Below, in pieces: positions 1-4,932 of a stretch of DNA of 36,731 nt; within the stretch, counting starts at the first letter, position 1; every line of letters begins with the position of its first letter. A model generated the notes under the pieces. It ran no database searches. It had not been told where the DNA came from and saw only the letters and a list, made by a program, of their open reading frames with translations. This stretch comes from Erysipelotrichaceae bacterium (GTDB lineage Bacteria; Bacillota_I; Bacilli_A; Erysipelotrichales; Erysipelotrichaceae): NCBI GenBank assembly GCA_017432545.1, contig JAFRJA010000108.1, positions 1 through 36,731 of the forward strand, read 5' to 3'. The translations under genes were made by a program, and so were the position numbers.

Positions 1-432
1 ACAGGATTCAATTTCATCAATATGTGCCTGGACTTTGTGTTTTACACTTGGAGGCAGTCTATTGAGCTTAGTAGAATTTTTACGGTTTAGAAATCTGACT
101 TTGCGATAGCGAGTCTTCCTGTTTCTACGAAATCTACGTGCCTGTCTGCGACCGTCTGTTTTGGTTTTGATATCGGTTCTTAATTCAACTTGCGACTGAT
201 ATAGAACTTCTCCGTTGGCAGCACACGCTGTACCAACATGCTTTGAACCTGTATCTTGTCCTAAGACAACTTCCTGTACAACAACCGTTTCAGGTTCGTA
301 CAATAACTTAATTGTGAATGGACAACGCCTTACTACTTTTGCTTTGTTTGAATTTAACAACCTGCGAACCTTGCCGAAACGTTTTGTCGGCATAAGCGCT
401 TGTCCATCTTTTGAAATTACATATACAAACAT
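1..432 (-). CDS. iscB: IscB RNA-guided nuclease, N-terminal part (runs off the left edge)
   Basis: The reading frame is open from ATG at 432 to base 1 (144 codons). It opens with a PLMP-type domain (MPTKRFGKVRRLL at residues 14-26, then KAKVVRR and PFTIKLLYE). A RuvC-I motif LGQDTGSK follows, with the likely catalytic Asp at residue 60. An arginine-rich bridge helix spans about residues 93-113 (TDGRRQARRFRRNRKTRYRK), and RLPPSV follows. This order is that of IscB, the transposon-encoded ancestor-like relative of Cas9 that uses an omega RNA to cut DNA. The HNH domain and RuvC-II/III would lie left of the window, so catalytic completeness cannot be judged. An AAAGGAG ribosome site precedes the ATG. 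The matching RNA lies directly upstream (433-704). IsrB, which lacks HNH, is the main alternative. Confidence 0.88.
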   Translation of the reverse strand, partial: MFVYVISKDGQALMPTKRFGKVRRLLNSNKAKVVRRCPFTIKLLYEPETVVVQEVVLGQDTGSKHVGTACAANGEVLYQSQVELRTDIKTKTDGRRQARRFRRNRKTRYRKVRFLNRKNSTKLNRLPPSVKHKVQAHIDEIESC

Positions 433-704
433 ACTAATTCCGGCTCCTTTCTAAGATTGTGAGATTTCTACTTTTTAAGACAGTAATCTCAAACTGTAAT
501 GCGTATCTTAATCCTGTTACCGGGTTAAGAATCCGTCTTCCTTTCGACAATGTTGAATGAGGTTTTGGGTTCTGACACACAAGGCTTTGCTTACTCGAAC
601 CCGACTTAATGTCAGAACACAGAGCATCGGTCTAAGGCGACAACCGAAGGTGTGTATGTGTTTCTCTCAATCAACGTAGGTATGGTTTCTCACACCTTAG
701 TCTT
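433..704 (-). ncRNA. HEARO / omega RNA of the IscB locus
   Basis: These 272 bases upstream of iscB have no convincing coding frame on the minus strand but contain several pairing segments. Read on the minus strand, examples are AACCCGGTAACAGGATTAAG, the CACCTTCGGTTGTCGCC segment and a GTTCTGACATTAAGTCGG...TGTGTCAGAACC stretch whose TTCTGACA/TGTCAGAA arms can pair. In known IscB loci a roughly 200-300 nt structured RNA (the HEARO motif) sits exactly here, carries the guide at its 5' end and runs up to or into the iscB start. Position, size and structure fit that. I did not fold it or match it to a covariance model, so the boundaries are approximate. Confidence 0.7.
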
Positions 705-754
705 GTGAACTATTTAATCGAAGCCACGAAGTCTTTAGCTTCATGGTAGTTCAC
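705..754. repeat. Nested hairpin at the presumed iscB transposon end
   Basis: GTGAACTA (705-712) pairs with TAGTTCAC (747-754). Inside it, CCACGAAG (724-731) pairs with CTTCATGG (739-746), allowing one G-T pair. Such subterminal hairpins are typical of IS200/IS605-type ends recognised by TnpA. The outer arm touches the metallophosphoesterase stop codon (754-756), so the element end lies right at the gene's 3' end. The guide portion of the omega RNA should be templated at or near this border. Confidence 0.6.
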
Positions 755-1845
755 TATGGCTTTAAAGTTATAACTTCATAGCGACAGGTCGATTCGTTCT
801 TGAATGGATAGAACCAGCCCGCAATACCCGGACTTACCAGCAACGTCGTATCATTGAACCTGTATTCATCTACGACATTAAGACCCGCCAGAGAATAGAG
901 GAAATGTAACGGGAAGTACTGCCCAGCATGGGTATGGCCACTCAGCTGCAGATCGGCTTTCAGTTCCCGGATCTCATCATTCTGATAAGGGGTGTGATCG
1001 ACACAGATCAGATAGGAGTCAGATGGAATACTTTTCAGTTTATCCAACGGCTGACGTTCCGGATGAGACACATCTTCTCTGCCTAAGATGACGATATCAT
1101 CCACGACCACATAATCATCTACCAGCATAATGAGGCCATTGTTTATGATCGCATCTTCAAGCTCATCTGCAGTGTACTTCTTACCACCCACATAATCTCC
1201 TCTTTCCTGACGGTCATGGTTGCCATAGATGAAGTAGACCGGACAATCAAAAGAACCTAATTGAGAATAGACCCATTCCATCTCTTCCTTTTCGCTCTTT
1301 TCATCAGTAATGTCACCACCCAGGATCACAAAATCAGGTTTAAGAGCCTTGATCTCATTGAAGGCATTTTGCACTGTATCCTTTCTCTGGCTTGAACCAT
1401 AATGTAAGTCAGAAAGGAAAACGAAACGATGTTCACTCTTCAGCTTATCAGACTTATAAGTCAGTTCATTAGCTCTGATGATCTGTGAATTGATCGTTCC
1501 ATACAGAAATACAAACAGCATAGCCACGATAGAAATGATCAGTGAATATTTCTTAGGCAGATCCTTTTTAAACAAAGAAATGATAAAAAGAATGATCTGC
1601 GCAAAAAAGTCAGCTAACAGAGCGATATAGATACCGCTTAACGGATAGCCATATTTCCATAAAAAAGGAGCTCCCATGGCGATAAGAGAAAAAGCCAGGG
1701 CGGTAGCGCCAAGTGCCTTCAGGATAAAGAAAACGATCTTTACTATTTTATTCTGAACTTTATCTGACAGACTGTTAAGCAGATAGACAAGCAGAAAACC
1801 GCATAAAGCTGACAATATCCAGTCTACATATCTCATAGTATTCAT
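754..1845 (-). CDS. Membrane-anchored metallophosphoesterase (YkuE-like)
   Basis: The protein has 363 residues. The first ~125 form about four hydrophobic segments. A calcineurin-like phosphoesterase domain follows with the metal-ligand motifs in order: SDLHYG, GGDIT, GNHD and SGHTHAG. These ligands bind a dinuclear metal centre and hydrolyse phosphoesters. The substrate cannot be told; relatives such as YkuE and LpxH-like enzymes act on membrane lipids or other phosphodiesters. The domain is C-terminal to the membrane part, facing in or out depending on topology. The stop codon touches the hairpin of the iscB element, but the gene appears intact. It is separated by about 50 bases from the GGDEF gene upstream on the same strand, so cotranscription is possible. 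Confidence 0.85.
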   Translation of the reverse strand: MNTMRYVDWILSALCGFLLVYLLNSLSDKVQNKIVKIVFFILKALGATALAFSLIAMGAPFLWKYGYPLSGIYIALLADFFAQIILFIISLFKKDLPKKYSLIISIVAMLFVFLYGTINSQIIRANELTYKSDKLKSEHRFVFLSDLHYGSSQRKDTVQNAFNEIKALKPDFVILGGDITDEKSEKEEMEWVYSQLGSFDCPVYFIYGNHDRQERGDYVGGKKYTADELEDAIINNGLIMLVDDYVVVDDIVILGREDVSHPERQPLDKLKSIPSDSYLICVDHTPYQNDEIRELKADLQLSGHTHAGQYFPLHFLYSLAGLNVVDEYRFNDTTLLVSPGIAGWFYPFKNESTCRYEVITLKP

Positions 1846-3447: not shown

Positions 3448-4932
3448 TTATTTATCATCGATCTTTTTCCAGTTGAGATCATTCAAAGTACTCTGATCCA
3501 AAGCACTACCCGATACGCCATAGACATCACCATACTGATTCTCATAGACATGATCGGCCCCCACACTTACCTGTACATTCTGGCCATAGCTGTTGGTGTA
3601 GGTGTTGACACCAAGGGTAGCTTCCGATCTGGCCTTGGACATCCGGGCATCAGAATCCATCTTCAGTTTCCAGGAATCCATCAGTCCGGCCGAAGCACTT
3701 CTTGAATACTCAGAGATCTTTCTGGAAGTCTCCATCTGCATCTGATGCAGCTGGGCCTGCTTCTGCATAACGATCTGCTGATTCATGGCTACAGCCTGTC
3801 TGATCTGGGCCATCTTCTGATTGATCAGATCAGCTGATCTTCTTGAAAGATCCTGATCCGGAGTATAAGTACTCACAAAGTTTATGAAATCTCTTTCCGC
3901 TTCCTTTTCCCTTTCCTTCAAGGCCACACAGAGGTACTTACGGTAGGCACCGAAAGTGATCTGATCAACTCTTCTTCCACTGTGGCCGAATTTCGGACTC
4001 TCTTCATTCACCTGCGGCTGCTGTTTAACAGGTTCATGAACTTTCATAGTTTCCTTTTCTTTATTCCTGCGCATCGCTTTGCCTAAAAGACCGCCATGCA
4101 TCATATCATCAAAAGTCAGCTTATCTTTTCCCGAGATCACATCCGAAACTGTTGAACCAAGATTCTGTAGTGACGGCGTACTGCCGACCAGTTTATTCAG
4201 ATTCTCTTTTAACTTATCAAGATTCAGACCTTTAAACAGATCAAAACCATAGATCAGTTCCTGGCCCTCATAATCAACACCCGCAAAGACCACACAATCT
4301 ACGCCGCTTTTGGTCTTACCTTCAAACTTATACAGCACTGATTCACAAAGCTGATTGACCGGAGCCGAAGGTATTTCCATGAAAGCGTCAAAAGCCGAAA
4401 CATCATTATTCAGCTGTGTTAAGGCGTCTTTAGGATTCTTGCCGAAGTAACTCGGCAGATCAGTCTTCGCCACCAGATTCAATACAGCCCCTGAGATCCT
4501 TTCCGCATATTCCTTTACATAGTCTTCCGGTTCTTCAAATGCCTTATAACCGTTTGAAGTATGATTAGGAACCAAAGCTATGATGCCTTTGATGAAGACA
4601 TTCTTTACATCATGAAACAGTTCCTTGGAGTCCGCAAACATAATGATCTCGTCGGCGTTGCTGGCGCTGGCTCTTGTGGTAAATGGGATCATCTCGGATT
4701 GCCACTGATTGGTGATCGTCGCATTCAACTTGTAACTATCCGGCACATATGCCGAAGCGATTCTTACGCCATCTGCCGTCACAAAATCTTTCAGATTGCT
4801 CTGATTCTCATTTGTCTTGTAAGTAATGTGGATACTGCTTCCGCATTTGGGACAGACTGTTATATGCGTATCGACACTGTCGATGTTCAGTTGTGCTCCA
4901 CATTGCGGGCAGGTATAGGCTTGAAATTCCAT
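3448..4932 (-). CDS. Zinc-ribbon protein with C-terminal coiled coil, function unknown
   Basis: The protein has 494 residues. The N-terminus carries a four-cysteine zinc ribbon (CPQCG at residues 8-12 and CPKCG at 27-31), followed by an alpha/beta region to about residue 260. A charged linker comes next, then a region rich in Arg, Gln and Met (~330-430) predicted to be helical or coiled coil. The tail is rich in Asn, Tyr and Gly and ends in WKKIDDK. There is no signal peptide or membrane span. Zinc ribbons at the N-terminus are common in bacterial proteins that recruit partners or nucleic acid, but I do not recognise a specific family. It is flanked by a terminator on each side, so it is probably monocistronic. 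Confidence 0.8.
   Translation of the reverse strand: MEFQAYTCPQCGAQLNIDSVDTHITVCPKCGSSIHITYKTNENQSNLKDFVTADGVRIASAYVPDSYKLNATITNQWQSEMIPFTTRASASNADEIIMFADSKELFHDVKNVFIKGIIALVPNHTSNGYKAFEEPEDYVKEYAERISGAVLNLVAKTDLPSYFGKNPKDALTQLNNDVSAFDAFMEIPSAPVNQLCESVLYKFEGKTKSGVDCVVFAGVDYEGQELIYGFDLFKGLNLDKLKENLNKLVGSTPSLQNLGSTVSDVISGKDKLTFDDMMHGGLLGKAMRRNKEKETMKVHEPVKQQPQVNEESPKFGHSGRRVDQITFGAYRKYLCVALKEREKEAERDFINFVSTYTPDQDLSRRSADLINQKMAQIRQAVAMNQQIVMQKQAQLHQMQMETSRKISEYSRSASAGLMDSWKLKMDSDARMSKARSEATLGVNTYTNSYGQNVQVSVGADHVYENQYGDVYGVSGSALDQSTLNDLNWKKIDDK

What the first reader, a model, noticed from the sequence alone, without database searches (positions are those of the whole stretch)
1..754. IscB RNA-guided nuclease locus with its own structured RNA at the window edge
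The minus frame shows the PLMP motif, RuvC-I Asp60 and the arginine-rich bridge helix in the right order. The non-coding 433-704 region upstream is where IscB's HEARO/omega RNA is known to lie. Most annotation pipelines miss both, since only shadow frames appear on the plus strand.
Basis: partly seen in the sequence, partly recalled or inferred. Interest (0 to 1): 0.8.

Follow-up and report, generated by a model that had tools for sequence, protein, structure and literature searches.

The report
IscB nuclease fragment with guide RNA
The window's edge holds the front third of an IscB gene (an ancestor-like cousin of Cas9) with its guide RNA, part of a small selfish DNA element that landed right at the stop codon of a phosphatase gene; it is a clear but ordinary member of a known family.

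Summary
Minus-strand 432-1 encodes the first 144 residues of an IscB (Pfam RRXRR 1.7e-44; NCBIfam IscB 4.9e-45), cut only by the contig end. Minus-strand 754-535 matches Rfam HEARO/ωRNA over its full length (100.2 bits, E 1.2e-19). HNH, RuvC-II/III and the TAM-reading domain lie off the contig and are untested for this copy. Corrections: the ωRNA is at 754-535, not 433-704; the motif reads ALMP; standard libraries detect these families.

The element's left end abuts the stop codon of a metallophosphatase gene, so its guide is that gene's 3' end. Contig C140 carries an IscB C-terminal tail, a right end and ATAAAA, and is collinear with DNA downstream of the phosphatase orthologue in a sister species: very probably the other side of this insertion. 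The joined site reads guide-target then ATAAAA, as expected if the ωRNA directs IscB to cut the unoccupied allele. Further copies sit broken at contig ends, which explains the assembly break. New member of a known kind.

The parts
1..432 (-). iscB, N-terminal 144 codons (PLMP-like domain, RuvC-I with Asp60, bridge helix); truncated by contig end
444..450 (-). Shine-Dalgarno AAAGGAG of iscB
   Evidence: sequence
535..754 (-). HEARO / ωRNA scaffold (RF02033, 100.2 bits, full length), GTGAAC type; its 5' end is the left end of the element
   Evidence: left end by comparison with 83 loci
755..774 (-). predicted guide segment of the ωRNA (…ATAACTTTAAAGCCATA): host DNA, the last codons of the metallophosphatase gene; its last 17 bases have no other exact match in the genome
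   Evidence: inferred from ωRNA anatomy; uniqueness
754..1845 (-). host gene: membrane metallophosphatase (calcineurin-like, PF00149 1.5e-17) at whose stop codon the element inserted; stop now reads TAG (TA + element G), was most likely TAA

Best explanation
This is the left half of a transposon-like IscB element (ωRNA plus iscB, probably without its own transposase) inserted at the stop codon of a metallophosphatase gene in a bacterium that is probably of the Erysipelotrichales (inferred from its nearest named relatives). The ωRNA scaffold begins at the element's left end, so its 5' guide (about 16-20 nt) is copied from the adjoining host DNA, the 3' end of the phosphatase gene. IscB loaded with this RNA should cut a DNA copy that still has the uninterrupted site, where the guide-matching sequence is followed by the TAM ATAAA(A). 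That would restore the element by recombinational repair after its loss, and so keep it in the population. Shown here: the protein fragment, the RNA, the left end, the clade, the clade's ATAAA right flank, and collinearity of C140 with the downstream side. Inferred: that C140 carries the right end of this same copy, that the missing middle is intact, that the RNA is made, and that cleavage occurs.
For: Protein and RNA models. Tree: window IscB joins the GTGAAC-type clade, 24 rows, support 98/87; its highest identity is 57% to L104. In that clade the right ends are followed by ATAAA in every copy whose right end could be read; OrufIscB, the best solved relative's parent, has a measured NTAAA/ATAAA TAM (PMC13180657). 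Own-genome scan for this type of right-end hairpin: four hits, none in the control, all within about 275 nt of contig ends. C140 starts with an IscB-like C-terminal tail (the tail, read from C189, matches GTGAAC-clade IscBs, best 59% over 27 aa to L147), then the right end and ATAAAAGGCGGG. From there it is collinear for 3.77 kb at 76% with the DNA just downstream of the phosphatase orthologue in G025, while the window's phosphatase is collinear with the upstream side at 68%. Three full-size IscBs exist in the same genome, two of them shown to carry HNH.
Against: About two thirds of the protein is off the contig, so an inactive or truncated copy is not excluded. In C140 the last nine element bases (AGAAAATAT) differ from the other right ends (C154, C189), although C101 has a similar tail; the exact right boundary is therefore uncertain by about 9 nt. 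Element bodies shared between copies mean that C140's tail may not belong to the same copy as the window's left half. No expression or cleavage data.
Confidence: 0.85

Rival explanations
1. A decayed IscB remnant: the N-terminus and ωRNA survive but the rest is lost or broken, so it is no longer a nuclease.
For: Only 144 codons are present; the family genome G037 holds IscB copies with internal stops.
Against: The reading frame is intact to the exact contig end; the full-length HEARO is well paired; right ends with an IscB tail exist in the genome; contig breaks at repeated elements are expected.
Confidence: 0.1
2. An HNH-less IsrB nickase rather than IscB.
For: IsrB shares the N-terminal domains (IsrB chain 8dmb matches at 6.5e-11) and the part that tells them apart is missing.
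Against: The best matches are all IscB (9.8e-20 and down; NF040563), the tree neighbours are IscB-sized ORFs of mostly about 420-480 codons, and the clade's right flank is ATAAA rather than the NTG(A) of IsrBs (PMC9581776).
Confidence: 0.03
3. The IscB/ωRNA has been domesticated to regulate or guard the phosphatase gene.
For: Same orientation, abuts the stop codon, guide is the gene's own 3' end.
Against: The IscB fragment found no match in the other same-genus genomes searched, while phosphatase relatives are common there; position at gene ends recurs at unrelated genes (13 of 83 elements have a same-strand stop within 40 nt upstream against 35 of 927 control positions, p 5.6e-5), which fits a TAM that contains stop triplets rather than a function.
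Confidence: 0.02

Closest known systems
OrufIscB (parent of PDB 9nvu; PMC13180657)
   Same: Best solved-structure relative of the fragment (9.8e-20); ATAAA right flank of the window's clade equals its measured NTAAA/ATAAA TAM
   Different: Window copy is cut at residue 144, so only the N-terminal third is comparable; the window's branch is long (0.57)
HEARO RNA and ORF elements (Rfam RF02033)
   Same: Full-length covariance match, iscB directly downstream, several copies in one genome
   Different: GTGAAC-type 5' stem; lower score (100 bits) than the other own-genome copies (134-143)
IS200/IS605-type IscB-TnpA elements (e.g. L126, L160, L121)
   Same: Same IscB clade and same ωRNA 5' type; ATAAA flank where readable
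   Different: No tnpA lies between the IscB tail and the right end on C140, so this copy looks non-autonomous
The genome's three full-size IscBs (C126, C170, C82)
   Same: Same architecture and genome
   Different: Other clade (GTC/TTC-type ωRNA; right flank ATGA at C126 and C170), about 55% identical in the shared part

Membership tests
IscB (OMEGA nuclease) | N-terminal PLMP domain, RuvC-I Asp, Arg-rich bridge helix in order | tested here: met
   ALMP at 12-15, D60, Arg-rich helix 95-110; RRXRR 1.7e-44
IscB (OMEGA nuclease) | HNH domain between RuvC-II and RuvC-III | not testable with these tools
   Contig ends at codon 144; two scanned paralogues in the genome have HNH
IscB (OMEGA nuclease) | C-terminal TAM-interacting domain | tested here: inconclusive
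   Not in window; IscB-like tail of about 34 residues on C140, probably this copy
IscB (OMEGA nuclease) | ωRNA/HEARO directly upstream of the ORF, same strand | tested here: met
   RF02033 535-754(-), 100.2 bits against gathering 83
IscB (OMEGA nuclease) | Groups with IscBs in a tree | tested here: met
   Joins the GTGAAC-type clade, 98/87
IscB (OMEGA nuclease) | RNA-guided cleavage next to a TAM | not testable with these tools
   TAM ATAAA predicted from flanks
Autonomous IS200/IS605 element | Y1 transposase tnpA in the element | tested here: inconclusive
   None between the IscB tail and the right end on C140, which argues against, but C140 is assigned to this copy by synteny only; 11 of 22 other GTGAAC-type loci have one
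IsrB | No HNH, NTG(A) TAM | tested here: inconclusive
   HNH region missing; clade flank is ATAAA, not NTG(A)
Cas9 (II-D) | Match to the Cas9d model over its cut-off | tested here: not met
   Cas9d model only 25 bits against cut-off 375

The most novel reading that the evidence does not exclude
IscB elements recurrently insert at same-strand gene ends and gene junctions because their TAMs (ATAAA, ATGA) contain stop and start triplets, so that natural guides are often gene 3' ends or Shine-Dalgarno regions, and the insertion leaves the upstream protein intact. The window is a clean case: the phosphatase keeps its sequence and only swaps TAA for TAG.
Probability: 0.45. Interest if true: 0.4.

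Novelty: new member of a known kind. Interest (0 to 1): 0.25.

Why it matters
It adds a deep branch to the ATAAA-flanked IscB clade, whose TAM matches that of an IscB already developed into a genome editor (OrufIscB), and it shows how TAM, guide and insertion site can be read from one natural insertion split over two contigs. It changes no concept: RNA-guided retention of IscB/TnpB elements is an established idea.

Tried and rejected
Searching the own genome for the rest of this iscB by DNA and by protein model found only the three other-clade copies and the fragment. Y1 transposase fragments at the starts of C75 and C77 looked like candidate right halves, but their tails lack the IscB right-end hairpin and no link to iscB was found, so they were dropped. 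A conserved left-flank motif in the GTGAAC class was looked for by eye and not seen. The original HEARO and OMEGA papers are not in the paper library; statements about them from memory were not used as evidence. CRISPR-like repeats were sought at L119 and not found.

Full report
What is there. On the minus strand the window begins (at the contig end) inside an open frame, 432 to 1, of 144 codons. It is the N-terminal third of an IscB: Pfam RRXRR 1.7e-44, NCBIfam IscB 4.9e-45 over profile positions 1-140, an OrufIscB derivative 9.8e-20 and OgeuIscB 3.8e-18 among solved chains. Asp60 of RuvC-I and the Arg-rich helix 95-110 are in place; the 'PLMP' motif reads ALMP. Upstream, 754-535 on the same strand matches the complete HEARO model with 100.2 bits, and the stretch folds better than all 100 shuffles.

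The window is the whole contig C55 of a 3.4 Mb, 219-contig genome, so the contig end and not a mutation cuts the gene. The same genome holds three full-size IscBs with HEARO RNAs (C126, C170, C82); the two of them scanned by Pfam carry an HNH domain. None of the 35 other same-genus genomes searched gave a match to the IscB fragment; a same-family genome (G037) has 25 matches.

Which IscB it is. I collected IscB loci from a scan of bacterial genomes and from related genomes, and mapped HEARO in them, 83 loci in all including the window. The first bases of the ωRNA fall into types (GTG, GTC, CTC). A tree of the N-terminal part puts the window at the base of the GTG-type clade (24 rows, 98/87), apart from the three own-genome copies, which sit with a Solobacterium IscB among the GTC types. 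All 11 loci with a Y1 transposase right behind iscB are of GTG type (11 of 22 besides the window, against none of 60 others). RNA type, protein clade and transposase association thus go together. The place of the window's long branch inside or just outside that clade is less sure than its nearness to it.

TAM and right end. Where the right end could be recognised, GTG-type elements are followed by ATAAA, and the other types mostly by ATGA. One search looked for those very motifs, so the printed tails are the more independent look. The TAM measured for OrufIscB is NTAAA with ATAAA best (PMC13180657), and IsrBs read NTG(A) (PMC9581776).

The other half of the insertion. A scan of the own genome for the GTG-type right-end hairpin gave four places, none in the control, all within about 275 bases of contig ends. 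C140, C154 and C189 share the right end; C140 and C189 also share an IscB-like C-terminal tail. Each goes on with ATAAAA and then different DNA. The tail resembles IscBs of the GTG clade. C140 continues for 3.77 kb collinear at 76% identity with the DNA just downstream of the phosphatase orthologue in genome G025, while the window's phosphatase gene is collinear with the upstream part at 68%. So C55 and C140 very probably face each other across one element. Joining the two flanks gives …GTTATAACTTTAAAGCCATA|ATAAAAGGCGGG: the phosphatase codons, a TAA stop, and the TAM in the position IscB needs. After insertion the stop reads TAG, formed by TA of the gene and G of the element; the protein is unchanged. 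The boundary on the C140 side could be 9 nt further left (AGAAAATAT), though C101 carries a similar tail at another site, which favours ATAAA. Two more left ends of this type (C54, C6) also stop at contig ends, so the element type is multi-copy and the assembly broke in it.

Guide. The 17 bases before the left end have no other exact match in the genome, so a loaded IscB would find no perfect target there except a copy of the locus that lacks the element.

Insertion near gene ends. In 13 of 83 loci a same-strand ORF of at least 80 codons stops within 40 bases upstream of the left end, against 35 of 927 control positions upstream (p 5.6e-5), and none on the opposite strand; Shine-Dalgarno-like words are also enriched (15 of 83 against 206 of 3076, p 4.9e-4). 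Loci from one genome are not independent, and the control positions are not either, so these values are rough. The simplest reason is that ATAAA and ATGA contain stop or start triplets; this was not tested separately.

Verdict. Real IscB and ωRNA; a new member of a known kind. Activity of this copy is inferred, not shown.

Noticed in passing
L101 (JAILBM010000078.1, Butyrivibrio sp. RUI559) 1524-2793: An iscB preceded by three tandem units, each a mini-array of CRISPR-like repeats (10 repeats in all, 65-67 nt spacing within units) whose last repeat runs straight into a HEARO scaffold: apparent CRISPR-array/ωRNA fusions in triplicate, plus an ordinary HEARO copy at 4504-4738.
   Followed up: partly
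G000:C101 (L187), last 330 bases, minus strand: Compact element of about 330 bp with GTGAAC-like left end and IscB-type right end followed by ATAAA but no iscB; looks like a non-autonomous derivative.
   Followed up: partly
G000:C54 (start) and C6 (end): Two contigs end in an identical GTGAACTACCC ωRNA left end, 78% identical to the window's: further copies broken by the assembly. C54 plus C189 would join as gene end, TAA in the TAM, then ATG of the next gene.
   Followed up: partly
L119: HEARO match whose 5' end fits none of the GTG/GTC/CTC types; no repeats found nearby; unexplained.
   Followed up: partly
G037 (same family): 25 IscB matches in one genome, several broken by stops: heavy IscB proliferation and decay.
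   Followed up: no
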